A DNA stretch of 29,281 bases, taken from the IMG/VR virus record IMGVR_UViG_3300044625_001142, positions 1 to 29,281 of that record; one strand, written 5' to 3'. The notes beneath the pieces were generated by a model that was given only the letters and a program-made list of their open reading frames with translations, was not told where the DNA came from and did not search any database. Position 1 is the stretch's first letter; every line of letters begins with the position of its first letter. Source of the DNA: a virus. Both the position numbers and the translations under genes were made by a program. Positions 1-11,379 of the stretch are shown here, piece by piece.

Positions 1-376
1 ACGTTCTCGCGTCGTGGCAACGCTTACATAACGGACGAAGGTTCGCGAGATCGTGCGTCCCGCCCGACTGTAAAGGTACTATGTGATCGACGACGGTCGC
101 CGGTGCGTCCTGACAGAACCGGCACAACGGTTCGAGTCGGAGAACCTGCGCACGGACGGCCCTCCACCGGGGGCCGTAATCCCGCCACGTTTCCCGTTCC
201 TTCCGGCGACGTTGGATCTCTGCCCGGTGCGTGTCGCAATACCCGTCGTGCGTCAGGACGCCGCACCCGTGAGAAGAACAGAACCGGGGGGGTCGTTTTG
301 GCACGGGGGGAGGTGTGCCGGAAACTGTGTTCGTGTGTTTCCCCGGGGTCACGGCAACGGGCCGGGCGTCCGTCAT
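1..376 (-). CDS. HNH endonuclease, partial (3' end beyond window)
   Basis: Reading leftward from an ATG at 376-374, an open frame of 125 codons runs off the left edge. The protein has a first cysteine cluster (FCSSHGCG and GYCDTH, about residues 32-49), then the HNH core: WRAVRAQVLRLEPLCRFC, followed by TVVDHIVPLQSGGTHDLANL and RPLCKRCHDART at the edge. The order CxxC - VDHI - N - CxxCH is that of phage HNH nucleases, which act with terminase in genome packaging in many cos-type phages. The start was chosen because GGAAGGG lies three bases upstream; a stop codon at 397-395 closes the frame above it. A GTG at 304 is a weaker alternative. The start codon lies in one arm of a large inverted repeat (374-418). 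Confidence in HNH is high; a packaging role is inferred. Confidence 0.88.
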   Translation of the reverse strand, partial: MTDARPVAVTPGKHTNTVSGTPPPVPKRPPRFCSSHGCGVLTHDGYCDTHRAEIQRRRKERETWRDYGPRWRAVRAQVLRLEPLCRFCQDAPATVVDHIVPLQSGGTHDLANLRPLCKRCHDART

Positions 377-418
377 TTTCCCTTCCGCGTCCCCTTAGGG
401 GGGGACGCGGGGAAAATG
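374..418. repeat. Imperfect inverted repeat at the HNH start
   Basis: CATTTTCC...CCGCGTCCCC (374-394) faces GGGGACGCGGGGAAAATG (401-418) around the spacer TTAGGG. The inner stem CCGCGTCCCC/GGGGACGCGG is perfect over 10 bp. It covers the HNH ribosome binding site and start codon on the minus strand, so as RNA it could hide the start, or it could be a protein binding site. It might equally be a weak terminator for the upstream small ORF. Function is inferred only. Confidence 0.6.
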
Positions 419-493
419 AACGTCCGCTACCGCTCCGGCCCTTATGCCGCTTGACCTTTTCGCAAGCGTGCGGGGGGCGCGCGGTTTCGTCAT
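395..493 (-). CDS. Possible 32-residue basic peptide
   Basis: A short frame from ATG 493-491 to TAA 397-395 would encode a basic N-terminal half (MTKPRAPRTLAKRSSG) and an unremarkable tail. The bases around its start, GGGAAAATGACG on the minus strand (499-488), are identical to those around the HNH start (382-371), which is the main reason to list it. It lies between the lipoprotein and HNH genes in the same direction and the same frame as HNH. No family is recognised. It could equally be non-coding, with the shared start sequence arising from a duplicated control site. Confidence 0.3.
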   Translation of the reverse strand: MTKPRAPRTLAKRSSGIRAGAVADVHFPRVPP

Positions 494-547
494 TTTCCCG
501 GCGTTTTGGGAAACTGACGGGGGGTGCGTGCTACCGGCGCGCGAGGG

Positions 548-898
548 TCATTCGCCGCACGCGCGGCGTTGTGCGCCCATCGCGTCGGCAAGGGCGGACA
601 CCGAGTCGTCGTATGTCGCGTATCCGGCCTTCTCGTTCTCTTCCGTTGCGACCCACACGCGGTAACTATCGAACGCGGCACGCACGGCGTCACTCGGCAT
701 TCCTGCCGGCCAACCGTTCACGTGCCGTCCGAATGCCTCCGTTGCGGTGTATCCGGCGTCGAAATCGTCGAGGATACGGGGGAGTATGGCGCACGCGGCG
801 ACGTCGGCCGGGGTGAGCGTTGGTGCGGTTTCGGTTGGCGGTGCGGCGCACCCAGCGAGGGTTGCGATCGTGAGGGCGAGGACGGTTCGTTTCAGCAT
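548..898 (-). CDS. Small predicted lipoprotein
   Basis: A 116-residue protein with a short charged N-terminus (MLKR), a hydrophobic stretch and a lipobox LAGC with Cys17, so it should be lipid-anchored outside the cytoplasmic membrane. The mature part is acidic and helical, with cysteines near residues 36 and 114, and matches no family I recognise. Phage lipoproteins expressed in lysogens often block superinfection; that role is an inference here. It follows the surface-modification genes with a 42-bp gap. There is no clear Shine-Dalgarno. Instead the start is preceded by a degenerate copy of the 15-bp repeat (914-928) and CCGGGT directly before ATG, the arrangement also found at the orphan gene starting at 6476. 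Confidence 0.78.
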   Translation of the reverse strand: MLKRTVLALTIATLAGCAAPPTETAPTLTPADVAACAILPRILDDFDAGYTATEAFGRHVNGWPAGMPSDAVRAAFDSYRVWVATEENEKAGYATYDDSVSALADAMGAQRRACGE

Positions 899-913
899 AC
901 CCGGCTACCGTGC

Positions 914-928
914 GCGCCGGGGGCACGC
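914..928 (-). repeat. 15-bp repeat, degenerate copy before the lipoprotein
   Basis: Minus strand GCGTGCCCCCGGCGC, 13 of 15 matches. It is part of the 33-base block (928-896) that resembles the block before the orphan gene at 6476. Another 13/15 copy lies at 466-480, beyond the lipoprotein stop. Confidence 0.55.
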
Positions 929-940
929 GGCGCCACGAGG

Positions 941-1831
941 TTACAGGGCGTCGAGAAGGGCGGCCGCCGCAACCGGGGCGGCGTTCCCTAAATGCGGATA
1001 CACGCGGGCCACGGCTTCCCGTCGCCGGCCGATCCACCCGTCGATCCGGCGCACCTCATCGGCCAACGGGAGTAACTGCCCGGGTTCGTTCACCTGAACG
1101 CCGGGAATGTCGCGCCAGAACCGGAGACCCTGTTCGACGTCGCGGCGATACCACGGGGCGTTTAGAACGATCACGGGGCGGTCCAGTGCGGCGAACTCGT
1201 AAAGGGTTGAGGACGTGTCGCACACATAGACATCGGCAAGGGCGACCACATCGGCGAACGTCTCGGCGATCTCCCACCCGAGTTCCTCGTATCGCGGTCG
1301 GGCGAAACCCCACGCGCGAGGGTGCGCGTGCCCGATCGGTTGCCATTCGGCGGGGACGTCGGCGAGAACGTCGGTGTAGTGCGGGAACGCCGTTCGGGTT
1401 TCCGGGACGACGTGACAGTCCCAATGCCACGAGAACGCCACCCGTCGCGTGCCCGGGGCGCGTAGTTTCGTCAGTGCGTCGAGTTTCGGGGCGCCGACGA
1501 TCGCGTGTCGCGCGTTCGGATACGCCGCCCGGTTCAGCGCGTCCACGTGCTCATTCACGTTCGCGAACAACCGGACACGATCCCGGCCACCGGCCCCGGC
1601 GTATGACCGGTTCGGACTGTTGTAGGTGAACCCGGCGCCGTGTTCGAAAAACGCGACCGGGCCGCGCGTGTTCTGATAGTCACGCCAAGACGCGACGACA
1701 GTTAGCGTGCCCGGGGCGCGTAGTTCCCGGGGTGATCGTGCGAACCGTCCCCGAACGTCTTCCGGTAGTGCGTCATACACGGGGCGGAGGTGTTCCGCGT
1801 AGTGCGGTTCCGTCGCGAGGAAATCGATCAC
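941..1831 (-). CDS. CDP-glycerol glycerophosphotransferase-like GT-B protein
   Basis: A 296-residue protein with the layout of TagB/TagF-type glycerophosphotransferases (GT-B fold): an N-terminal Rossmann strand (TLTVVASW), then FFEHGAG with a histidine in the position typical of the family, a linker, a C-terminal Rossmann strand (RRVAFSWHW), and the nucleotide-binding motif VCDTSSTLYEFAALDRPVI followed by VLNAP. Family members transfer glycerol-phosphate units from CDP-glycerol to cell-surface polymers, but related enzymes use other CDP-activated donors. It starts with GTG overlapping the stop of the upstream glycosyltransferase (GTGA), so the two are probably co-translated. Two exact copies of the 15-bp repeat (1447-1461, 1705-1719) lie inside it, each encoding RAPGT just before a Rossmann strand. 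The acceptor (host wall polymer or virion protein) is unknown. Confidence 0.8.
   Translation of the reverse strand: MIDFLATEPHYAEHLRPVYDALPEDVRGRFARSPRELRAPGTLTVVASWRDYQNTRGPVAFFEHGAGFTYNSPNRSYAGAGGRDRVRLFANVNEHVDALNRAAYPNARHAIVGAPKLDALTKLRAPGTRRVAFSWHWDCHVVPETRTAFPHYTDVLADVPAEWQPIGHAHPRAWGFARPRYEELGWEIAETFADVVALADVYVCDTSSTLYEFAALDRPVIVLNAPWYRRDVEQGLRFWRDIPGVQVNEPGQLLPLADEVRRIDGWIGRRREAVARVYPHLGNAAPVAAAALLDAL
1447..1461 (+). repeat. 15-bp repeat, copy 1 (exact)
   Basis: GCGTGCCCGGGGCGC on the plus strand, inside the glycerophosphotransferase-like gene where it encodes APGT on the minus strand, at the junction of the two GT-B domains. It shares a further 3' CGTAGTT extension (broken only at position 16 on) with copy 2. 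See the findings for the family as a whole. Confidence 0.85.
1705..1719 (+). repeat. 15-bp repeat, copy 2 (exact)
   Basis: GCGTGCCCGGGGCGC on the plus strand, inside the same gene as copy 1 and in the same reading frame (APGT), just before the first Rossmann strand of the protein. Copies 1 and 2 are identical over about 22 bp, through the downstream GTAGTT. Confidence 0.85.
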
Positions 1832-2757
1832 AACCGGAGGAGACGACGTTCGAGTTCGTCTATGTATGGATCGGGGGCGAGTTCAGCGGACCGCGCAAGG
1901 GCGGCGGCGCTTTTCTCCGCATACACGGCCGGGTCGTCAAGCGCCCAGATCGCTTCCACCCATTCGGCGATTTCGCCCCGGTCGGCGAACGTGCCCGACG
2001 AGCCGAGACTTTCCAACAGTCCCGGCGTCGGGTGCGCGATCGACGGGATACCGGACGCGGCGGCCTCGATACCGACACGGCCCCACGACTCGTAAGCGGA
2101 CGGCACTAACAGAACGCGCGTCTTGCCGTAGATGGAGCGAATGTCGGGGGTATGCGGGACGAGTTCCACGTTCGACGGGATCCGGTCCGGTATGATCTGT
2201 TCGGAGTATCCGCCATAGACGCCGACGAACCGGTGATCGCGTAAGATACGCGCCAACGTCCAGAACACGCGCGCACCCTTGTTCTCGCCGAGATTTATGA
2301 GCGTCAGTGCTTCACCGGGCGTCGTCCTGTAACGTGCCGGATCGACCGGCGGCGGGATCACTATTGTCTGTCCCTGCCATCGGATCGCGCGTTGTATCCA
2401 CCGGGAGTTCGCAACGACGAGGGACGCCTCGCGGGGCTTTACGCGGTGGAACCGGAGTTGTTGGTCGTTATGGATCAGGTGAACGAGGTGTTTGCGGCCC
2501 GCGTTCGTGCGTATCACTATCCGGGTTCGGTCAAGGTGCGTAAAGACGACGTCGGCGTCGTCGATCAGTGCGGACGGGTCAGCGGTCGCGGCCGTCTCGA
2601 TCTTGACACCCTCCCACTCGGTTACCGAACTACGGTCAACGTAAACGGTAGTGTTGTGCCCGCGTTTTTGGAGTTGTAGGAGGATCTCGTGTAACATCAG
2701 TTCCGCCCCGGCGCAATGGTCCGGGGGGTAGAGGTGAACCCACGCGAGGATTTTCAC
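1828..2757 (-). CDS. GT4-type glycosyltransferase
   Basis: A 309-residue GT-B glycosyltransferase. The N-terminus KILAWVHLYPPDHCAGAE is the family-4 opening with the GAE acceptor-side loop. The C-terminal half has VPSAYESWGRVGIEAAASGIP, containing the E-x7-E donor-binding motif. It transfers a sugar from an activated donor to an unknown acceptor. The start is GTG 2757-2755, overlapping the TGA of the upstream methyltransferase as GTGA; a longer reading to 2925 only re-reads that gene in another frame. It is translationally coupled at both ends to neighbours that also look like surface or glycan modifiers. Capsid or tail glycosylation, cell-wall modification to exclude other phages, and DNA base glycosylation are all possible; the glycerophosphotransferase-like neighbour favours a surface polymer. 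Confidence 0.85.
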   Translation of the reverse strand: MKILAWVHLYPPDHCAGAELMLHEILLQLQKRGHNTTVYVDRSSVTEWEGVKIETAATADPSALIDDADVVFTHLDRTRIVIRTNAGRKHLVHLIHNDQQLRFHRVKPREASLVVANSRWIQRAIRWQGQTIVIPPPVDPARYRTTPGEALTLINLGENKGARVFWTLARILRDHRFVGVYGGYSEQIIPDRIPSNVELVPHTPDIRSIYGKTRVLLVPSAYESWGRVGIEAAASGIPSIAHPTPGLLESLGSSGTFADRGEIAEWVEAIWALDDPAVYAEKSAAALARSAELAPDPYIDELERRLLRL

Positions 2758-3269
2758 GCGGCGGGGGCGAGACGGACGATCTGCGCGCCGTATCGGTGCT
2801 CGTAGTGTTGGACGCGTCCCGTCTCGACGAAATCGGCGAACGTCCAATGCGATACGTGCGCTTCCGTCGGCGGGAGACCCGGGCCGGTGTCGAAATGCTC
2901 GATCGGTGTAGCGATCACGAACCACGCGTGCGGAACCCGGGCGAGAAACGCGAGCGCGTCGGGTTTCTCTATGTGTTCGATAACGTCACCCATAACGATC
3001 AGATCGTAAGGGGCGAGTTCGTCGTCGGTCAGCGTCAAGACGTCCCGGACATACACGTGATCATAGATCGCCGGGAGCCGGTGCGCCGCGACGTAAGGTT
3101 CCCACGCTTCCACTGCGTCCACGACGGGCGTTGGATCGAGGTATTCGCGTAACAGGACGCCGTGTTTCCCATACCCGGCGCCGACGTCGAGAATGCGGCG
3201 CGGGGTCGGTTGGATCGTTCCCGCGAGGGTGATCGTCCGTTCGGCCACTAACAGAACTCCGGAAGGCAT
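2754..3269 (-). CDS. Class I SAM-dependent methyltransferase
   Basis: A 171-residue Rossmann methyltransferase with motif I RILDVGAGYGKHG (about residues 25-37), an acidic second-strand end (DAVEAWEPY), and YDLIVMGDVIEHIEKP as the motif III/post-III region seen in small-molecule and sugar methyltransferases. There is no DNA methylase (N/D)PPY motif, so it probably methylates a metabolite or glycan rather than DNA. It lies 15 bp below the DNA methyltransferase gene and overlaps the glycosyltransferase by 4 bp. Start choice: ATG 3269 has no clear ribosome binding site, whereas a GTG at 3248 has GGAG eight bases upstream and would shorten the protein by seven residues without touching motif I. 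O-methylation of a sugar added by the next gene is a reasonable inference. Confidence 0.8.
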   Translation of the reverse strand: MPSGVLLVAERTITLAGTIQPTPRRILDVGAGYGKHGVLLREYLDPTPVVDAVEAWEPYVAAHRLPAIYDHVYVRDVLTLTDDELAPYDLIVMGDVIEHIEKPDALAFLARVPHAWFVIATPIEHFDTGPGLPPTEAHVSHWTFADFVETGRVQHYEHRYGAQIVRLAPAA

Positions 3270-3284
3270 ACGGTAACGAGTGCC

Positions 3285-4874
3285 CTAAACGCCGAGCGAT
3301 AGTTGGCTGTGCTTTTTCTGCGCGTGGCGGACACGTCCCGCGATGATCGGGAGGTAGTCCGGGGTCAGTTCGCACCCAATCCACCCGAAACCCTCCGCGA
3401 TCGCGGCGACCGCCGTCGTTCCCGAACCGAGGAACGGATCCAATACGACGCCGCCGGGCGGGGTGACCAGACGCACCAGATACCGGATCAGCGCAACGGG
3501 CTTTACCGTCGGGTGATAGTTCGCGCGGGCGGCCGTTTTATGCCCGTCGAGTGACCCATCGACACGCCCGGCGTAGACGCCGGGCGTGTCCGCCTTTTTC
3601 AGATCGTCGAGACCGGCGTTCCGTTCCGCACGTGACGGTTTCGGACAGTAGAAGAAACGCGACGCGCCGCCGGTGTCTCCGTATTGAGGACCACACGGAA
3701 TACCGTTGCCTTCGTTCCAGATACCGCCGGTGCCTCTGTCGTCTCGGGGCTTGCCGGCTTTGCTTGTTCCGCTTTGCGCGTCGAGTTCGACACCGGCGGC
3801 CTCGTCGAGTATCACGTTCGCCGGCCAGCGTCCTGCCTCGTGTGGCACGATGGTGACTTCGGGCGTGTTGCGTTTGCCGCCGCCGGGAGCCATCGCCCGG
3901 CCGGCGGGGTATTTCGTGGAACCCATCTTGTCGGTCGTCCCGATCCGACAACCGTCTATGTTGAGCGCGCCGGTGCCGTGCGCTAACACGTTCGCGGCGA
4001 CCGTGCCGTCGAGCGGCTTACGCGCAACGACGATCGGTTCGTGTGCGGGTTTGAGGGCGGTCCCCCACCCGGCCCACTCTTTCGCCGCGTCAGTCGCCGG
4101 TTTGTCGCGTTTTTCTTTCGGTGTCAGATTAGCCTCGAATTCGTAGTTGGCTCTCCACTGCGCCGCGGCTGCCGCTGCCTTGTGTCGGCCCGTCACTTCG
4201 CGTTTGGCCCAGTTCGGCCCGGGTTGTCCCTTGCGGCCGTTGAGCGTCCAGAGAAGGTCGCGAACGCGCGCCGGGATTTCGTCAAGCGTCACGCCGAGCA
4301 CGTCGAGAAGGTCGGACACCTGTTCCAACGTCGGGACCGTTGGTTGGCTTTTCGAACTCGTCCAATGTCCCGCCATACCGGAGAACCCGAACGCGTCGTC
4401 TATGTCCCGGTTCGACAAACCCGCCGCGTCACGTGCCGCACGTATCCACGCGGTAACCTCGTACACCTCCGCGCGGTCGTCGCGCTGCTTGTCTATCGCC
4501 TTCGACACGTCCAACGACTTAGGGAACCCGGAACCGTAGATCCAGTGTATCGAGTCGCGGATCTCGAACCCGGCGTCCTCGATCGCGACGACCATACGGT
4601 GATACGTGCGCGTCCCGCCGAACGCGAGAAGGTGCCCGCCCGGTTTCAGCACCCGCAAACACTCCTGCCACAGTTCGACCGAATACGCAACCCCGGATGC
4701 GTCCCACGCCTTCCCCATAAATCCCAACTCATACGGCGGATCGGTCACGATACTATCGACCGAACCGTCGGGGAGATCCCGGAGCCGGTCCAGACACGAC
4801 CCGACCAGAACCCGCCCGGTAGCATAACGAACCGTTTTCCGCGCCGGTTTCCCGGCCTGTTTCCGTTTACCCAT
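3285..4874 (-). CDS. DNA methyltransferase (N6-adenine/N4-cytosine type)
   Basis: A 529-residue DNA methyltransferase with catalytic motif TDPPY (residues 44-48) before the SAM-binding motif DPFLGSGTT (479-487), the beta-class order. DPPY favours N6-adenine. An insertion of about 80 residues (about 128-210) looks like an Xre-type helix-turn-helix (AAGLSNRDIDDAFGFSGMAG, then PTLEQVSDLLDVLGV) and may contribute to target recognition. No restriction enzyme gene is adjacent, so it is probably an orphan methylase protecting phage DNA or regulating it. The start ATG 4874-4872 begins MGKRKQAG; the longer frame to 5150 overlaps the divergent operon and is rejected. A perfect 14-bp-arm inverted repeat (3561-3590) lies within the coding region. 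Confidence 0.93.
   Translation of the reverse strand: MGKRKQAGKPARKTVRYATGRVLVGSCLDRLRDLPDGSVDSIVTDPPYELGFMGKAWDASGVAYSVELWQECLRVLKPGGHLLAFGGTRTYHRMVVAIEDAGFEIRDSIHWIYGSGFPKSLDVSKAIDKQRDDRAEVYEVTAWIRAARDAAGLSNRDIDDAFGFSGMAGHWTSSKSQPTVPTLEQVSDLLDVLGVTLDEIPARVRDLLWTLNGRKGQPGPNWAKREVTGRHKAAAAAAQWRANYEFEANLTPKEKRDKPATDAAKEWAGWGTALKPAHEPIVVARKPLDGTVAANVLAHGTGALNIDGCRIGTTDKMGSTKYPAGRAMAPGGGKRNTPEVTIVPHEAGRWPANVILDEAAGVELDAQSGTSKAGKPRDDRGTGGIWNEGNGIPCGPQYGDTGGASRFFYCPKPSRAERNAGLDDLKKADTPGVYAGRVDGSLDGHKTAARANYHPTVKPVALIRYLVRLVTPPGGVVLDPFLGSGTTAVAAIAEGFGWIGCELTPDYLPIIAGRVRHAQKKHSQLSLGV
3561..3590. repeat. Perfect 14-bp inverted repeat inside the methylase gene
   Basis: GACACGCCCGGCGT (3561-3574) and its exact reverse complement (3577-3590) are separated by only AG. 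On the minus strand it encodes DTPGVYAGRV of the DNA methyltransferase. On the plus strand the hairpin is followed by CGCCTTTTTC, so it resembles a rho-independent terminator for antisense transcription. It could also be a protein-binding dyad or an mRNA structure slowing translation of the methylase. Confidence 0.85.
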
Positions 4875-4942
4875 ACGGGGACGCGTGCCCGCGTGCGGGG
4901 GGCCTATTGCCGAAATCGGAACCCCGGGCACGCTCCCCGGGT
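4875..4942. promoter_or_regulatory. Divergent intergenic region with dyads
   Basis: The 68 bp between the leftward DNA methyltransferase and the rightward lysis-type operon must hold both promoters. It contains a small dyad CCCGC-GT-GCGGG (4888-4899), a 13/15 copy of the 15-bp repeat in inverted orientation (4919-4933), and a second CCCCGGG just before the rightward ATG. No convincing -10/-35 pair could be assigned. Its position makes it a likely operator, perhaps for the small HTH protein encoded immediately to the right. Confidence 0.5.
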
Positions 4943-5188
4943 ATGGATACACATACACGCGTCGCGGCCGCGAAACACCGCGAGTTAGAGGCACGCAAGA
5001 TCGCGGACGCCGCCGCCGCCGACTATCGAAAGACGGTGCGTGACGCCGTCGCCGAATGGCGCGCCGGGGGCGCTTCCCTCCGGGTATGCGCCGAACGTAT
5101 GAACATAACCGAGGGCGCGCTCCGCGACCTGTTGCGGCCCGACGGGACACCGCGACGCGCGAAACGCCGTAAACCGGTGACGCCGTGA
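4943..5188 (+). CDS. Small HTH-like protein
   Basis: An 81-residue, strongly charged protein. Residues about 5-40 form a probable helix rich in Ala, Arg and Glu. Residues about 42-66 (GASLRVCAERMNITEGALRDLL) look like a helix-turn-helix. The C-terminus is basic (RRAKRRKP). It probably binds DNA. The ATG at 4943 follows CCCCGGGT directly with no purine-rich ribosome binding site; the frame stays open further left but only into the control region. It heads the rightward operon and overlaps the transglycosylase start. It could regulate the divergent region, but no family is recognised. Confidence 0.7.
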   Translation: MDTHTRVAAAKHRELEARKIADAAAADYRKTVRDAVAEWRAGGASLRVCAERMNITEGALRDLLRPDGTPRRAKRRKPVTP

Positions 5189-5592
5189 AACTCCTAACGG
5201 TCGCCGCAATCGTCGTCGCGTCATTCCTAACACCGGACCGCGCCGCACCCGAAATACCGGTCCCGGCGTCGGCGAAATGCCGTCAGTATTGGCGGACCGC
5301 ACTCGCGGCCGGTTGGCGCGAACACGAACTCCCGTTGTTAGACGCGGTCATTTGGCGCGAATCGCGGTGTAAACCGAACGTCGAGAACCCGAACGACCCG
5401 TGGGGAGGTTCCATCGGACTGTTACAGGTAAACCGGGGTTGGGTCCGATGGCTCCGCGAGCGCGGCGTTATCGGCCATTCCTCCGACCTTTACAACCCGC
5501 ACCACAACCTCGCCGCCGGCCGCGCGATCTATGAATACGCGTGCTCCCGGCACGGGCACTGTTGGATTGCTTGGGGGATACTCTCTGCGTAG
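5185..5592 (+). CDS. Secreted lytic transglycosylase-like muralytic enzyme
   Basis: A 135-residue protein with an N-terminal hydrophobic signal or anchor segment (residues 1-16) followed by a goose-lysozyme/SLT-like core. VIWRESRC carries the expected catalytic Glu59, GGSIGLLQVN (74-83) is the family's conserved turn, and DLYNPHHNLAAGRAIYE (101-117) is the usual downstream motif. Such enzymes cleave the glycan strands of peptidoglycan. It starts with GTG overlapping the TGA of the HTH gene. It lies apart from the M15 endolysin at 15.5-16 kb and on the other strand, so it is either a second lysis module or a wall-remodelling enzyme made at another stage. Cysteines at 32, 62, 120 and 126 could form disulfides outside the cell. 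Confidence 0.88.
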   Translation: MKLLTVAAIVVASFLTPDRAAPEIPVPASAKCRQYWRTALAAGWREHELPLLDAVIWRESRCKPNVENPNDPWGGSIGLLQVNRGWVRWLRERGVIGHSSDLYNPHHNLAAGRAIYEYACSRHGHCWIAWGILSA

Positions 5593-5619
5593 TCCCCGGC
5601 CGACCCCACTCCTAACGGC

Positions 5620-6165
5620 GTGGACGACACACAACGGGAACACCGGCGAATGCTGCGCGAACGTCGCCGCCACGAGGCGATACGCGGAATCGCCGGAACC
5701 GATCGTCCCCGTTGCGAATGCTGCCGCGAACACCGCATTTGGACACTCACGTTCGACCACCGGCACGGCGGCGGCAACGACGACCGTCGCGCCCACGCGA
5801 ACGCGCCGACAATCCAGATCATACGCGGAGAACGTAAACGTCTCGGCCATTGGCCCACGGACAAATACGCGATTCTCTGCGCAACGTGTAACCACGGGCG
5901 ACGCGTCTCCCCGGACGGCGTCTGCCCACACCAGAACGAAACCGGGGGAGGTGAAATGACAACAGAACTCCGCACACTCGCCGGGACCATCGTCCGCGTG
6001 TTCGTCGCGGCAACACTCGCCCAGTTCATCGCGAACGGCGGCGACGTGTTCGCCATCGACGGCAACGCCGCAAAGACGATCATCTCGTCCGGCATTGCGG
6101 CCGCCGCGATCGCGCTCTACAACTACGCGAACCCGCGCGACCACCGCTACGGGATCAAGCGCTAA
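5620..6165 (+). CDS. HNH/endonuclease VII-like segment fused in frame to a holin-like segment
   Basis: A continuous 181-codon frame from GTG 5620. Residues 1-112 contain paired cysteines (CECC, about 31-34), LTFDHRHGGGNDD, and CATCNHGRR, a zinc-bound beta-beta-alpha nuclease pattern like recombination endonuclease VII. Residues 113-181 are a separate two-helix membrane unit. There is no stop codon between them, and the second part has its own strong ribosome binding site (see the entry at 5956). Either the full fusion is made, or a short nuclease gene has lost its stop. It follows the transglycosylase by 27 bp and ends before a terminator. Assignment of the first half is by zinc and DH motifs only; no activity can be asserted. 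Confidence 0.65.
   Translation: MDDTQREHRRMLRERRRHEAIRGIAGTDRPRCECCREHRIWTLTFDHRHGGGNDDRRAHANAPTIQIIRGERKRLGHWPTDKYAILCATCNHGRRVSPDGVCPHQNETGGGEMTTELRTLAGTIVRVFVAATLAQFIANGGDVFAIDGNAAKTIISSGIAAAAIALYNYANPRDHRYGIKR
5956..6165 (+). CDS. Holin-like two-TM protein (internal start)
   Basis: Starting at ATG 5956, with GGAGGTG placed four bases upstream, this gives 69 residues: MTTELRTLAG, a first hydrophobic helix (TIVRVFVAATLAQFIA), a polar loop with DGNAAK, a second hydrophobic helix (TIISSGIAAAAIALYNY) and a basic tail (NPRDHRYGIKR). Size, two helices and the charged C-terminus fit small phage holins, which form holes in the cytoplasmic membrane at lysis. The neighbouring transglycosylase supports this. 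The same frame is open upstream, so the protein may be made both alone and as part of the 181-residue fusion. Confidence 0.78.
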   Translation: MTTELRTLAGTIVRVFVAATLAQFIANGGDVFAIDGNAAKTIISSGIAAAAIALYNYANPRDHRYGIKR

Positions 6166-6190
6166 CCAACGCGCCCCGAAAAACGATCAA

Positions 6191-6214
6191 CCCCGGGAGT
6201 TTCGGCTCCCGGGG
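6191..6214. terminator. Bidirectional rho-independent terminator
   Basis: CCCCGGGAG (6191-6199), loop TTTCGG, CTCCCGGGG (6206-6214): a perfect 9-bp GC-rich stem followed by TTT on the plus strand. It sits 25 bp after the rightward operon and before the convergent gene at 6285-6476, so it ends at least the rightward transcripts. Confidence 0.88.
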
Positions 6215-6266
6215 TTTCGTGCGTTCACGGCACGAACGCGCAACGCCCTAACACGTCAGACCCCGA

Positions 6267-6281
6267 ACGTGCCGGGGGCGC
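6267..6281 (+). repeat. 15-bp repeat, degenerate copy (13/15)
   Basis: ACGTGCCGGGGGCGC, differing from the consensus at positions 1 and 8, lies three bases beyond the stop of the gene at 6285-6476. With the exact copy at 6492-6506 it brackets that gene. Confidence 0.5.
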
Positions 6282-6284
6282 GGA

Positions 6285-6476
6285 TCAGAACTCTACGGGT
6301 GCCGCAACGTCGGCCGTTGCCGCGTCCACGATCGGACACCACACCGGGTCCTCGTTCGGACGGGACAACACGGCGAGGAGTTCGTCCGGGGTCATCTCCC
6401 GGTAGTATGCGTAAGCGCTACCGGCGGTTAGAAAGATCACGGGACGGTCGGGGTTGAGGAGTTCGGGCGTTTTCAT
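6285..6476 (-). CDS. Small orphan protein of unknown function
   Basis: A 63-residue protein (MKTPELLNPDRPVIFLTAGSAYAYYREMTPDE..., only part shown) with no membrane segment, an MTPDELLAVLSRP helix and one cysteine. No family is recognised. It stands alone between convergent terminators and faces the rightward operon. There is no Shine-Dalgarno. Upstream lies an exact 15-bp repeat copy, then CCGGGT directly before the ATG. A TAGTGT six bases before the ATG would fit a -10 element of a leaderless actinobacterial transcript, which is an inference. A small gene with its own signals in a phage is a plausible lysogeny-expressed factor. Confidence 0.6.
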   Translation of the reverse strand: MKTPELLNPDRPVIFLTAGSAYAYYREMTPDELLAVLSRPNEDPVWCPIVDAATADVAAPVEF

Positions 6477-6506
6477 ACCCGGACACTATGCGCGCCCCGG
6501 GCACGC
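6474..6506 (-). promoter_or_regulatory. Start-associated element with exact 15-bp repeat (copy 3)
   Basis: On the minus strand, GCGTGCCCGGGGCGC (6506-6492) is followed by GCATAGTGTCCGGGT and the ATG at 6476. This 33-base block matches the block before the lipoprotein gene (928-896) at 27 of 33 positions with identical spacing, which suggests a shared promoter, operator or translation signal. Copy 3 is inverted relative to copies 1, 2, 4 and 5. Confidence 0.65.
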
Positions 6507-6651
6507 GCCGCAAGGGAGACGGCCGCGAAATCCCGCACCCCGTCAGACGCGCCCAGATCGTTTCTCCGGGGCGTTTCGCCCGGAAAGGGTGTCCGGGTGC
6601 TCCCCGGGCGTTTTCACCGCTCCTGCGCGTTCCTGACGTCAGAAAAGCAAA

Positions 6652-6676
6652 AAACCGGGGCGTTTTGCCCCGGTTT
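6652..6676 (-). terminator. Strong terminator after the integrase
   Basis: AAACCGGGGC (6652-6661), loop GTTTT, GCCCCGGTTT (6667-6676): a perfect 10-bp stem. On the minus strand the stem is followed by TTTTTTGCTTTT, a good U-tract, 27 bp after the integrase stop. It should end the long leftward transcript. The rest of 6477-6702 holds copy 3 of the repeat and a weaker hairpin (about 6563-6585); I cannot identify attP. Confidence 0.92.
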
Positions 6677-6702
6677 CCGCTCCGAAACTGCCGCGAACGG
6701 CG

Positions 6703-9609
6703 TTAGAGGACTTCGACCGTCCCCCCGGCGCCACTTTCGCCCTTCTCGGCGAGGGTGTTACGCGGCCCGGACCACTTGCGGCCGTAGTCGGCCGGGAATA
6801 CCACGGTCGGGAGTTCCGGCGCACGACGGCACGTCGAACAGATCAGACCGCCCGGCACTTCCGGCACACGCACCGGGTGATCGAGTGTCCGCGTTCCACA
6901 GAACGGGCACGGACGAACCCACACGCGGCGGTCCGGGTTCCTGTTATGCCACTTCTCCGACCGTTCGAACACCGGCGCAAGACTGCTCGCCCCGGCGCCA
7001 CGACGACGCTTCCCACGGGTCAGTTCCTCACCGACGATACGCGGTGAAAGGGTCGTGATCTGCGGCAACACGTCACGGACGAACACGTCCCAACCGATAC
7101 CGTCATCGCCGGCCGCCTTCGCTGACGCGATCGCACGACGAACCGTCTCTTGCGTGTCAAGCACCCACGCGAACACCCAACCGGCATTCGACGAATACAC
7201 GTCGCGGACGTGCGACGAGAACGCCGGGTCGATACCCGCCGGGACGCGGAACGGCTTCCCGCTTTTCGCCTCTTCTACCATCGCCCAGATCACGCGGCGC
7301 GTTTCCTCCACCGGGCAATCGATCGCCGCGACACGGAGACCGATAGACGGCAAGATACCGAGACGGCGGAACTCGTCGTGGATCGCCCGGGCGACCTTTT
7401 CGCGGGTCGTGAAACCCAACGCGTCGCGGATCTCGTCGAGCGACTCGCCCAACGCGAACCGGCGTTCCAACACGCCCTCGCGACGGGCACGCACCCGGTC
7501 GGCGGTCGCCACGTTACGCACGCGGCACTCGATCGGACCGAACACCGCCGGACCTTCGTCCGTATCGACGGACAGATACAGGGATACCCCGACGTGCGCC
7601 CGGTCGTCGCTGACGACGAACCGTAGATCGAGGACACGATCGCGGAGCGCAAGGTTCAGGGTCGCCGGTGCCTTCCCGTCCGTTTGCGCGAGGAGCGCAA
7701 CGGCGGCGAACAGATCCGACACCTGCGCACGCGCCGCGTCGGTCAGTCCGGGGACGTCGATTTCGAGTTCGGCGTCGGTGATCTCCTTCCGGAGTTCTCG
7801 GACGCGTTGTTCCGCATTCGACAGATCGCGCGTCGCGCCTTTCAGCGTCTCACGGTTCGCGGCCGTTGGATCCTCCGCGAAAATCTCGTCGGCGATACCG
7901 TAAAGGTTCCGCGCACGGTTCGCGGCCTTTTCCGCCATTGCGAGTTCGTTTTCGAGTAGCGACGTTTCGCGTGCCCGGGGCGCGCCCTTGCGGGTCGTCT
8001 CCCGTTGCCACTGAACACCGTTCTCCGTCAACGCCGCGACGATGGACCCGGCGACCGCCCCGTGGAGTTCCACGTCGTCGATCGTCGCCATCTTCTCGCA
8101 TTCCTCCCAACGCCAACCGAGGGAACGCCCGGCCGCGTCACGGGCCACGGTCAGCGGACGTCGGACCAACTGATACGACCGGCCGGAGAACGCACCCAAC
8201 CGCCATTCGTGATCGTCGACGATCCACGCCGGGAACCCGGTCATCGGCTTACGCTCCACGTGCCGGGACGCCGCCCGCCCCCGGGCGGACTCTTCGCGTT
8301 GCCCGCCGAAACGCTTTTCGCGGCACGCGGCGACCAGTTCATCGGGAACCCACTTCCCGCCGGGGAGGGCGCCGTGTCCGAAATCGAGTTCCGTCGCAAG
8401 GAACTTCACGCGGCCGACGGCACGCCACTTCTCCGTTACGGCGGCGGCGACCTTCTCGTCGGCGATCGGGATACGCTGTTCGTAGTAGTAGATCCCGGTT
8501 TCCAACAGGGAACCGATCACAACGTCGCCGGCCTCGTCTACGCGCTGAATGCCGACGAGACGGTTCAGCATAGAACGGACGACGAGGTGCGGGTTACGCG
8601 CGTCGAGGACGGTCGCGTTCGGGTTGTTCAGACGTGCCCGGAGCACGGCCGAACCCCACCCGTATTTCGTCGCCAACTTCTCCGCGATCTCCCGCTCGGT
8701 CAGATCGGACGCACCCCACGTCAGGACGTCGCGGACGAGATCCTGTTTCGTGACGTCCGGAACGACGCGGACGCTCTGTTGCCCGCGCGGACCGTAAACC
8801 GTCTCGAACCGGTAGCACCCGAGCGCCGGTAGCGCGTCCTCGGACTTTGCCCACTGCCCGTCCATAAGGACGTCGTGCGCGCCGCGTTGGAGACGGTCGA
8901 CGGTGTTTGTGTAGTCCCATACCGCGCCGTCGAGGTAGTTAGAGAACGATTGCGACCCGGCGTCGGTCCACATTGCCATCGGCGGACACCCATACGCGAC
9001 GATCGTCGTCCGCGCCTTTTCGCACGCGTCCGCGAGTTTCATACCGTGCCGCTTCGAACGTGCGACGCGCGTAATCGGGCCGGTCACGATCTCGGATACC
9101 GAATGCCGGAGAACCAGTTCGGCGAGACGGTCGGTGAAATCGTTAGACTCGTTCTCGTTCGACTTTGCCGCCGAGAACAGGGATACGAGGAACAGGGTGT
9201 CCCCGATCTCCAACACCCACCCGATCGTTTTCCGGCCGGAGAGACCGCCGGTCAGCGTCCGGGCGTTGTAGCGTGCGCGGAGTTCCTCCGCCGCACGCCC
9301 CTTTTCGGCAAGGGCGACACCGTGCGTCAGGAACTCGGCGACGTCGGCGTCGTCCTCATACGGACGGCACGTGTATTCGATCAGTTTTTCCAGTTCGCCG
9401 AACGCGTTCTCGTCGGACTCTCGAAACACAAACAACCGGTCATAGTGCCGGGCCGTTCCGACGGTTGCGGCGAGACGATCCGCACGCCGGGCGGCTTCCC
9501 GGTGCGCGGTCGTGATACGCGAGGGGGCGACGGCGGTCCCGGTCGCGGCGGCGGGTTGTTCGTGCTGACCGTATGCGTTCCGGGTGCGCTTCGTCTTTTT
9601 CGTTGCCAT
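6703..9609 (-). CDS. Very large serine integrase
   Basis: A 968-residue site-specific recombinase. The catalytic N-domain shows R63-x-S65 (FVFRESDEN) and ITRVARS (R181, R184), matching the R-x-S and DRLGR motifs of serine recombinases. Between them is an insertion of about 60 residues beyond the usual spacing. A recombinase domain follows (about 200-330; VLMDGQWAKSEDALPALGCYRF and EREIAEKLATKYGWGS). The usual mid-protein zinc ribbon cysteines are not seen. A coiled coil (about 545-640), an HTH-like stretch (about 710-745) and a C-terminal zinc ribbon (CPFCG, CSTC; about 902-925) make up the rest. Typical family members are about 450-650 residues. The start ATG has GGAG upstream. It integrates the genome, presumably without host factors. 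An exact 15-bp repeat (7969-7983) lies just before the coiled coil. Confidence 0.85.
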   Translation of the reverse strand: MATKKTKRTRNAYGQHEQPAAATGTAVAPSRITTAHREAARRADRLAATVGTARHYDRLFVFRESDENAFGELEKLIEYTCRPYEDDADVAEFLTHGVALAEKGRAAEELRARYNARTLTGGLSGRKTIGWVLEIGDTLFLVSLFSAAKSNENESNDFTDRLAELVLRHSVSEIVTGPITRVARSKRHGMKLADACEKARTTIVAYGCPPMAMWTDAGSQSFSNYLDGAVWDYTNTVDRLQRGAHDVLMDGQWAKSEDALPALGCYRFETVYGPRGQQSVRVVPDVTKQDLVRDVLTWGASDLTEREIAEKLATKYGWGSAVLRARLNNPNATVLDARNPHLVVRSMLNRLVGIQRVDEAGDVVIGSLLETGIYYYEQRIPIADEKVAAAVTEKWRAVGRVKFLATELDFGHGALPGGKWVPDELVAACREKRFGGQREESARGRAASRHVERKPMTGFPAWIVDDHEWRLGAFSGRSYQLVRRPLTVARDAAGRSLGWRWEECEKMATIDDVELHGAVAGSIVAALTENGVQWQRETTRKGAPRARETSLLENELAMAEKAANRARNLYGIADEIFAEDPTAANRETLKGATRDLSNAEQRVRELRKEITDAELEIDVPGLTDAARAQVSDLFAAVALLAQTDGKAPATLNLALRDRVLDLRFVVSDDRAHVGVSLYLSVDTDEGPAVFGPIECRVRNVATADRVRARREGVLERRFALGESLDEIRDALGFTTREKVARAIHDEFRRLGILPSIGLRVAAIDCPVEETRRVIWAMVEEAKSGKPFRVPAGIDPAFSSHVRDVYSSNAGWVFAWVLDTQETVRRAIASAKAAGDDGIGWDVFVRDVLPQITTLSPRIVGEELTRGKRRRGAGASSLAPVFERSEKWHNRNPDRRVWVRPCPFCGTRTLDHPVRVPEVPGGLICSTCRRAPELPTVVFPADYGRKWSGPRNTLAEKGESGAGGTVEVL
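7969..7983 (+). repeat. 15-bp repeat, copy 4 (exact)
   Basis: GCGTGCCCGGGGCGC inside the integrase gene, in a different reading frame from copies 1, 2 and 5 (it encodes APRAR rather than APGT). It lies at about residue 542-546, immediately before the coiled coil. It shares 18 bp (CGCGTGCCCGGGGCGCGC) with copy 3. Confidence 0.85.
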
Positions 9610-9841
9610 TGGGGTTCTCCTGCCCGGGGGGTTGGATCCGGACAGGGACCCACCGTGCGCGCGGCGGAGAAAACGGCAAGGAGGTTATGCGTGTAGCGGG
9701 TGCCCACAACGCGAGTTCCCGCCCCAACCGCTAACCGCGCGACACCCTGCGGATACCCGCGCCGGTATTGGCTTTTCGCACGTCACCGCCCCCACTGTCG
9801 GCGATCCGGGCGCCCGGGCAACTCCCGGACCCGGCGTTTCG
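9610..9841. other. Intergenic region between zinc protein and integrase
   Basis: 232 bp with no convincing gene. It holds the integrase ribosome binding site (GGAG), a perfect 12-bp palindrome CCGGGCGCCCGG (9806-9817), an adjacent small hairpin CCGGG-CAACT-CCCGG (9814-9828), and on the plus strand AAGGAGGTT followed by ATG 9687 and only 15 codons. It could carry attP or an integrase promoter, but I see no specific evidence for either. Confidence 0.5.
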
Positions 9842-10531
9842 CTATTTCCGGAAACGCTTCCCGGTCCCGGCGCACACCGCGCAACGCGGGTCCGTGCTCG
9901 CGGCCTTCCGGCGGCACGACACGCAATCGACGAACGGGCGGCCCTTCCGGACCTTCCCGTCGATACCGGAACGGAACTCCGATTGGTGACGTTGTGAACC
10001 ACACCCGGGGCACGGCTTCCACCCATACGGCGGACGGAAACAGTCACCCCGACACTCGGAACAACTACCCGTCGGCTGCCCGTCCGGTCGGCGCGTATCA
10101 TCGACCGTCGTCCCTTTGCCGCACGTCTCACATACCACGCACGGCGTCAGATCGACGTTGTTCAGCGTGCCCGGGGCGCTGACATTTTCGGCCGGCGTAT
10201 CCCCGGTTCGGGGTTTCCGCCCATACTCCTGTTTCCGTGCCCGCACCTCGGCCCGGGCCGCGTCCACGCAATCGACACACTCGCGCATACGGTTAGCCTT
10301 CCGCGTGTTCCCGTATTGGTCCACGTGATCGGAGAACCGGGGGAAACTGTCAAGGGGCAACAGACGTTCGCACCGGCGACACGTCTTCTCCGTCTTTGTC
10401 CTCGCGGCCTTCGCAATCGTTATCGGCGTTCCACGTGCCGCGTAGAATGCGGCGAGACGGTCAACGTCGATACCGTCCCGACGTGCGATGTCCGGATCTA
10501 CACGGATACCGAAATCGGTTCGCGCGCTCAC
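9842..10531 (-). CDS. Multi-zinc-finger protein next to the integrase
   Basis: A 229-residue protein with seven CxxC-type pairs. The N-terminal half has an HTH-like region (about 16-45) and KTCRRCERLLPLDSFPRF...CVDC, a zinc motif common ahead of HNH domains, but no HNH core follows. The C-terminal half has CVVCETC, CSEC, CPGC, CVSC and CAVC. It probably binds nucleic acid or acts as an assembly factor. The GTG start overlaps the sigma factor stop (GTGA), so it is co-expressed with the sigma factor, and it precedes the integrase. A role as integrase partner or directionality factor is only a hypothesis. The linker between its halves holds an exact 15-bp repeat (10165-10179), encoding SAPGT. 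Confidence 0.75.
   Translation of the reverse strand: MSARTDFGIRVDPDIARRDGIDVDRLAAFYAARGTPITIAKAARTKTEKTCRRCERLLPLDSFPRFSDHVDQYGNTRKANRMRECVDCVDAARAEVRARKQEYGRKPRTGDTPAENVSAPGTLNNVDLTPCVVCETCGKGTTVDDTRRPDGQPTGSCSECRGDCFRPPYGWKPCPGCGSQRHQSEFRSGIDGKVRKGRPFVDCVSCRRKAASTDPRCAVCAGTGKRFRK
10165..10179 (+). repeat. 15-bp repeat, copy 5 (exact)
   Basis: GCGTGCCCGGGGCGC in the linker between the two zinc-rich halves of the protein at 9842-10531, encoding APGT on the minus strand. Flanking bases extend the imperfect dyad (TCAGCG...CGCTGA). Confidence 0.85.
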
Positions 10532-11379
10532 AACTCCCCCAATCCGAACGGGTTAGCGGGGTGTGTCAGTTTCGCCAACGCGGACGCCTCCAACCGGCGC
10601 ACCGCTTCCCCAGACGTGCCGAGTATCTTACCCAACTCGGCAAGGGTGCGACCTTCCGCACCATTGAGACCGAACCTTGCCTCTATCACGATACGTTCCT
10701 CCTCTGTCAGCGTTTCCAACGACCGCCGGACACGTTCGAACAGATCCTCCCGTTCGACCGTCTCTTCCGCCCCGCGGGACGGATCGGCGACCACGTCCTC
10801 CACGGTGAGGGAGTCCCGATCGGTCGCATACGCGCCCGTGACCGGTTCGGATAGACTGACGTTCGCTAACGGGAGATCCTCCAACCGGGGAACGCCCCCG
10901 GTAACGTCCGCGATCTCGGCGTCGGTCAGACGCCGCCCCAACTCGTTTTCCCGTTCCTTCACCGCCCGGGTTGCCAACGCCGCCGAATACGCAACCTCTT
11001 TCGGGATCCTGATCTGCCGGGAGTAATCTACGGCTTTGTTTAGGGCCGTTGTGACGTATCGTCGCGCCCACTGATACGGTGACATACCGCCCGGCGCGGG
11101 GTTCCACCGGTCCATCGCCTCCGTCAGCGCCGCAACCCCGATCGCGAAAATCTCGTCCCGGTCGAGCCGGTGTTCGTATCCCCGGCCTATTGAGACCACT
11201 AACCGGAGGTGACGTTCGATCAGTTCGTCCCGGACCCGGCGACGGGCGTCCGCGTCACCGGCCGCGATCGCGGCGGAGAGTTCCGCCGTGATACGTGCCG
11301 TGTCCGCCGCTGTAAGCGGCGCGAAACGCTCGTCGCCGAGCCGTAGAGACAGGGGGTCGCCCCCCTTGTGTGTGTTCAC
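10528..11379 (-). CDS. Phage-encoded sigma-70 family sigma factor
   Basis: A 283-residue sigma factor. Region 2 spans about 52-126, with LIERHLRLVVSIGRGY, DEIFAIGVAALTEAMDRW and the helix SPYQWARRYVTTALNKAV that melts and reads the -10. Region 3 is about 127-165 (IPKEVAYSAALATRAV...LTDAEIADVTG). Region 4 is about 219-272, with LETLTEEERIVIEARFGLNG and an HTH, TLAELGKILGTSGEAVRRLEASALAKL. The order and spacing are RpoD/SigB-like without region 1.1, larger than ECF sigmas. It should redirect host RNA polymerase to phage promoters. It starts with GTG at 11379, 47 bp below the helicase, and overlaps the zinc protein. The start lies in a dyad GTGTG-TT-CACAC (11370-11381) and shares TGAACACACACAA with the annealing-protein start. 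Confidence 0.92.
   Translation of the reverse strand: MNTHKGGDPLSLRLGDERFAPLTAADTARITAELSAAIAAGDADARRRVRDELIERHLRLVVSIGRGYEHRLDRDEIFAIGVAALTEAMDRWNPAPGGMSPYQWARRYVTTALNKAVDYSRQIRIPKEVAYSAALATRAVKERENELGRRLTDAEIADVTGGVPRLEDLPLANVSLSEPVTGAYATDRDSLTVEDVVADPSRGAEETVEREDLFERVRRSLETLTEEERIVIEARFGLNGAEGRTLAELGKILGTSGEAVRRLEASALAKLTHPANPFGLGEL

What the first reader, a model, noticed from the sequence alone, without database searches (positions are those of the whole stretch)
1447..10179. A 15-bp sequence repeated exactly five times, mostly at domain boundaries inside genes
GCGTGCCCGGGGCGC occurs at 1447, 1705, 7969 and 10165 on the plus strand and at 6492 inverted; copies 1-2 are identical over about 22 bp and copies 3-4 over 18 bp. 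A given 15-mer should not recur by chance in 29 kb even at this GC. The genic copies are read in two frames (APGT in three, APRAR in the integrase), so the conservation is at DNA rather than protein level. All four sit where a protein linker is expected: before each Rossmann domain of a GT-B enzyme, before the integrase coiled coil, and between the two zinc-rich halves of the next protein. This suggests a spreading mini-element that survives only at tolerant sites, or a protein binding site (repressor/stoperator-like). No exact copies were seen right of 10.2 kb.
Basis: partly seen in the sequence, partly recalled or inferred. Interest (0 to 1): 0.78.

Follow-up and report, generated by a model that had tools for sequence, protein, structure and literature searches.

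The report
Repeated control site across phage genome
A 15-base sequence found five times in an uncultured actinobacterial phage is one version of a short DNA signal kept by several of its distant relatives, probably a landing site for a phage control protein that sits both in front of genes and, unusually, inside the loops of protein-coding genes.

Summary
GCGTGCCCGGGGCGC occurs exactly five times, and codon-preserving shuffles never give more than three copies of any 15-mer. It is the local version of a broader motif, TGCGTGC-YNNGG-GYGY (near-palindromic here: GCGTGC-N5-GCGC), with at least six more copies in the window. Uncultured relatives from 37% to 64% G+C carry the motif, each with its own centre: CCGGG here, CCTCG, TGGGG or YCCCG elsewhere. 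A matrix trained without the window and its nearest relative still ranks the five copies 2nd to 6th in the window. Two capsid-related isolates show no enrichment.

The motif avoids the structural genes, runs mainly antisense to transcription (34:7), and occurs upstream of start codons, just after stop codons, upstream of the terminase operon, and inside genes. In-gene copies lie in poorly conserved loops, are read in two frames, and turn over between relatives; three of four show no real insertion. This favours a DNA-binding site over an inserted mini-element.

Best explanation: operator/stoperator-like sites of a phage regulator. The best candidate is an 81-residue HTH protein (4943-5188 +) whose divergent promoter region carries sites. 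No binding is shown. It resembles Cluster A stoperators and Microbacterium phage start-associated repeats but belongs to neither.

The parts
1447..1461 (+). exact copy 1, inside glycosyltransferase-like gene 941-1831 (-), antisense, residue about 123
1705..1719 (+). exact copy 2, same gene, antisense, residue about 37
6492..6506 (-). exact copy, intergenic, 15 nt before ATG (6476) of a 63-aa gene; lies in the 17-bp gap between TTGCGG (6513-6508) and CATAGT (6490-6485); position conserved in G001
7969..7983 (+). exact copy, antisense inside the 968-aa recombinase-like gene 6703-9609 (-), residue about 542
10165..10179 (+). exact copy, antisense inside endonuclease VII-like gene 9842-10531 (-), in a segment of about 22 residues that the relative lacks
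466..480 (+). variant GCGTGCGGGGGGCGC upstream of the terminase-side HNH gene; position conserved in G001
526..540 (+). variant GCGTGCTACCGGCGC, 8 nt after the stop of the lipoprotein-like gene; position conserved in G001
914..928 (-). variant GCGTGCCCCCGGCGC, 15 nt before ATG (898) of the lipoprotein-like gene; position conserved in G001
6267..6281 (+). variant ACGTGCCGGGGGCGC, 4 nt after the stop of the 63-aa gene
5539..5553 (+). variant GCGTGCTCCCGGCAC, palindromic core, near the end of a lysozyme-like + strand gene (5185-5592)
4919..4933 (-). variant GCGTGCCCGGGGTTC in the divergent region between the HTH gene and the methyltransferase, about 10 nt before the HTH ATG
4943..5188 (+). 81-aa HTH protein, candidate binder
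6285..6476 (-). 63-aa gene downstream of the 6492 site
548..898 (-). 116-aa lipoprotein-like gene downstream of the 914 site (signal with LAGC)
   Evidence: lipobox by eye

Best explanation
The 15-mer is this phage's version of a sequence-specific DNA-binding site, TGCGTGC-YNNGG-GYGY, read by a phage-encoded regulator in a lineage of uncultured siphophages. Copies near start codons and in the divergent and late-operon control regions act as operators. Copies inside genes act as polar, stoperator-like sites where bound protein hinders transcription of the non-structural half. The likeliest binder is the small HTH protein at 4943-5188 (+), which would also control itself. SHOWN: the motif, its enrichment, its sharing by relatives, orientation bias, location bias, turnover in place. 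INFERRED: that a protein binds it, that the HTH protein is that protein, and that in-gene copies affect transcription. The confidence is for 'binding site of a phage regulator'; for the HTH protein as binder I would give about 0.4.
For: Fixed spacing of 5 between GCGTGC and GCGC in two genomes with differing centres. De novo discovery of the related motif in G010 and its presence in 37% G+C relatives. Cross-genome matrix ranks the five copies 2-6; leave-one-out enrichment 17 vs 1.8 (window), 13 vs 1.8 (G001), 10 vs 2.0 (G007), 19 vs 2.2 (G010), 5 vs 0.6 (G016), none in two control phages. Antisense orientation 34:7 and no site in the structural block of five genomes. Intergenic sites keep their positions while genic sites do not. 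Upstream control region of the HNH/terminase operon carries the motif or a variant in the relatives read. HTH gene conserved in six genomes, with sites in its promoter region in the window and G007, and a relative found only through the HTH protein has motif variants.
Against: No binding data. G012 has the HTH gene but no clear enrichment, G030 has none in 6.7 kb, and G001 has no site next to its HTH gene. The HTH family match is weak. Sigma and WhiB-like proteins are equally conserved candidates. Relatives are not independent, so the orientation and location p-values are optimistic, and the site lists were partly chosen by hand.
Confidence: 0.58

Rival explanations
1. Promoter elements of the phage-encoded sigma factor (10528-11379), some of them giving antisense transcripts.
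For: The sigma factor is conserved in the lineage; two sites lie 15 nt before start codons and one overlaps a promoter-like gap.
Against: No conserved -10-like sequence at a fixed distance from the motif (by eye); most sites point against the genes.
Confidence: 0.15
2. A spreading mini-element that survives only at tolerant sites.
For: Copies within one genome are more alike than copies between genomes; copies 1-2 share 21 bp; two G010 copies share about 37 bp; the 10165 copy lies in a window-only segment.
Against: Three of four genic copies, and two more in G001, replace equal lengths of coding sequence with at most one residue of gap; some intergenic copies are fixed in position.
Confidence: 0.1
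3. A packaging, replication or recombination signal.
For: The region upstream of the HNH/terminase genes carries the motif plus C-tracts and GGGAANNTSA repeats.
Against: Sites are scattered over the whole non-structural half but absent from the structural half, unlike a genome-wide polar signal or a single packaging locus.
Confidence: 0.12
4. Chance plus codon bias in GC-rich DNA, or an RNA hairpin.
For: Thirteen to fourteen of 15 bases are G or C, and the motif is nearly palindromic with a G-U compatible mismatch.
Against: Codon-preserving shuffles; presence in 37% G+C relatives; RNA folds of both strands are no better than shuffled sequence, the best z-score being -1.3.
Confidence: 0.03

Closest known systems
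Stoperators of Cluster A mycobacteriophages (L5, Bxb1; PMC6550527)
   Same: Multiple short sites, mostly one orientation relative to transcription, promoter and non-promoter positions, a consensus that varies between related phages
   Different: Cluster A sites are 13-14 bp without dyad symmetry, 20-30 per genome throughout the genome; here about 10 sites, near-palindromic in the window, only in the non-structural half and partly inside genes, with an unrelated 81-aa HTH candidate
Inverted repeats of Microbacterium Cluster EG phages, compared by their authors with Cluster O mycobacteriophage repeats (PMC7302621)
   Same: Inverted repeats 14-22 bp upstream of start codons, conserved between diverged genomes, function unknown; compare the 6492 and 914 sites at 15 nt
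   Different: Those are intergenic and start-associated with a different consensus (GATCAACCNNGGTTGATC); here many sites are inside genes or after stops
Repeats of Microbacterium Cluster EC and EI phages (PMC7302621)
   Same: 5-12 copies, phages with a sigma factor gene, function unknown
   Different: Intergenic; EC repeats lie 22-30 bp before starts; sequences not available here for comparison
Start-associated sequences (SAS/ESAS) of Cluster K mycobacteriophages (PMC3203893)
   Same: Asymmetric short repeat, mostly one orientation, conserved across subclusters
   Different: SAS lies at the ribosome-binding position with a proposed role in translation initiation; this motif does not sit there

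Membership tests
Cluster A stoperators | Orientation biased relative to transcription | tested here: met
   34 antisense to 7 sense at 13 bits or more over seven genomes
Cluster A stoperators | 13-14 bp site lacking dyad symmetry | tested here: not met
   Window and G001 sites are near-palindromic; G010 sites are asymmetric
Cluster A stoperators | 20-30 sites throughout the genome | tested here: not met
   About 10 strong sites, none in the structural block
Cluster A stoperators | Cognate Cluster A type Rep repressor encoded | tested here: inconclusive
   No repressor family found among the proteins scanned; the HTH candidate has no match in the phage collection; not every ORF was scanned
Cluster A stoperators | Repressor binding blocks elongation | not testable with these tools
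   Needs binding and reporter assays
Start-associated repeats (SAS, Cluster EG/O inverted repeats) | Sites lie just upstream of start codons | tested here: not met
   Only 6492, 914 and 4919 do; the genic copies and the after-stop copies do not
Inserted mini-element | Insertion at the copy that is absent from relatives | tested here: not met
   Three of four genic copies show no gap or one residue; the 10165 copy is an exception

The most novel reading that the evidence does not exclude
A distributed roadblock (stoperator-like) system unrelated to Cluster A, in which an 81-residue HTH protein reads sites written into the variable loops of coding sequences, antisense to transcription, with a centre that drifts from phage to phage and may set immunity type.
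Probability: 0.25. Interest if true: 0.68.

Novelty: new variant of a known kind. Interest (0 to 1): 0.52.

Why it matters
Stoperators are described for Cluster A mycobacteriophages. A second, sequence-unrelated case with sites inside coding loops would suggest that distributed roadblock repression arose more than once, and would show regulatory DNA shaping protein loops. The lineage has no isolated member close in helicase or HTH protein in the collection searched, so the motif also gives a handle on gene control in uncultured phages.

Tried and rejected
Exact look-up of the motif in the paper library found nothing relevant. The genome collection gave no prophage relative by helicase, so no host. 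Isolated phages have no close helicase, sigma or HTH relatives. The recombinase alone gave no relative at first; relatives came through the sigma and capsid proteins. Pattern scans of IMG/VR for motif variants mostly returned single matches in unrelated contigs, about what chance would give by my rough estimate; nearly all contigs with several copies belong to the lineage. An RNA hairpin, a fixed -10-like sequence after the motif (by eye) and Chi-like use were considered and set aside. An early idea that the 5540 copy lay in a promoter was dropped when a lysozyme-like gene was found there. G012, though a relative, is not clearly enriched.

Full report
WHAT WAS CHECKED. The window is a whole IMG/VR record of 29,281 bp from a siphophage. 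Its main genes are on the - strand: portal, head maturation protease, major head protein, head-tail adaptor, tape measure, Dit and tail genes, WhiB-like, DnaB-like helicase, sigma factor, endonuclease VII-like, a 968-aa protein that I read as a large serine recombinase although it has no Pfam match, DNA methyltransferase and glycosyltransferases. Up to 3 mismatches gives 26 matches against 6.5 expected. Codon-preserving shuffles reach at most 3 copies of any 15-mer, against 5, and at most 3 GCGTGC-N5-GCGC, against 8. Copies 1-2 share 21 bp; copies 3-4 share only the 15-mer.

THE MOTIF IS BROADER. In the window and in the syntenic relative G001 (IMGVR_UViG_3300047564_003388, about 68% DNA identity) the ends GCGTGC and GCGC are kept at a spacing of exactly 5 while the centre varies. 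Further relatives came through the capsid. G007 (54% G+C) carries TGCGTGC-CCTCG-GCGC. Unbiased gapped-pair counting in G010 (54.5% G+C) gave GCGTG-NN-GGGGG as the top signal, 8 seen against 0.06 expected, which is TGCGTGCYGGGGGTGT. G016 and G019 (37-38% G+C) carry TGCGTGCTGGGGGTGT and TGCGTGCTGGCGGTGT. A matrix built without the window and G001 puts the five copies at ranks 2-6 in the window. Leave-one-genome-out scans show enrichment in the window, G001, G007, G010 and G016, and none in the isolated phages Orcanus and Chewbacca.

WHERE IT SITS. Some sites keep their place between the window and G001: upstream of the 63-aa gene, upstream of the lipoprotein-like gene, and the pair upstream of the terminase operon. 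The sites at 6492 and 914 each lie 15 nt before an ATG. The 6492 copy fills the 17-bp gap between TTGCGG and CATAGT, a weak promoter match. Other sites follow stop codons by 4-13 nt. The window's genic copies are antisense, are read in two frames, and lie in loops where 0-2 of 6-7 residues match the relative although the glycosyltransferase and recombinase are about 60% identical; apart from the 10165 copy there is no gap larger than one residue. In the recombinase the window, G001 and G007 have sites at different positions. Some G010 sites first called genic lie upstream of the probable true start. No listed site falls in the structural block in five genomes, and orientation is 34:7 antisense. 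These last tests treat related genomes as independent and use site lists partly chosen by hand, so their p-values are optimistic.

WHO MIGHT READ IT. A small HTH protein is encoded against the main genes at 4943-5188 (+). Homologues occur in G001, G007, G010, G016 and G012, with a near-invariant [TS]EGALR[DE]LLR helix and a basic tail. AlphaFold2 predicts a long helix followed by a helix-turn-helix (pLDDT 87); PDB matches include Fis but none is significant. In the window the divergent region between this gene and the methyltransferase holds GCGTGCCCGGGGTTC and, on the other strand, GCGTGCCCGCGTGCGGGGGG. In G007 a site lies 15-16 nt before the HTH start. A relative found through the HTH protein alone, G029 (37% G+C), has TGCGTGTTGGGGGCGT upstream of that gene. 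Against this, G012 and the G030 fragment have the protein without clear motif enrichment, and G001 has no site beside its HTH gene.

INTERPRETATION. I favour operator/stoperator-like sites of a phage regulator, with the HTH protein the leading candidate. Binding and function are inferred. Cluster A stoperators share multiplicity, polarity and a per-phage consensus (PMC6550527) but differ in symmetry, number and position. Microbacterium Cluster EG 18-bp inverted repeats lie 14-22 bp before starts and have no known function (PMC7302621), like the 6492 and 914 sites. Cluster K SAS sites sit at the ribosome-binding position (PMC3203893), which this motif does not. A spreading mini-element is not supported by the alignments. 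An RNA hairpin is not supported by folding. Sigma-factor promoters and packaging or replication signals remain possible.

Noticed in passing
window 282-540 and the equivalent region upstream of the HNH/terminase genes in relatives: A control region with C-tracts of 5-7 bases, a second repeat (window CGTCATTTTCCC at 371-382 and 488-499; GGGAANNTSA-like in relatives, sequence differing per phage) around a GC-rich hairpin; it could be a packaging, replication or late-promoter region.
   Followed up: partly
window 5185-5592 and 5620-6165 (+): A lysozyme-like gene and an HNH-like/hydrophobic-tail protein on the strand opposite to the main genes, missed if only long - strand ORFs are read.
   Followed up: partly
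window 10528-11379 (-): A phage sigma factor is conserved across the lineage; G012 has a second sigma-like ORF beside it. Its promoters are unknown.
   Followed up: no
G010 oriented 26100 and 27790: Two motif copies share about 37 bp (ACACCCCCAGCACGCAATCCACACYTGGGCGCACCC) upstream of two genes, longer than the motif itself.
   Followed up: no
window 6703-9609 (-): A 968-aa recombinase-like protein with a C-terminal CxxC pair and no Pfam match; a relative at 32% identity in G007.
   Followed up: no
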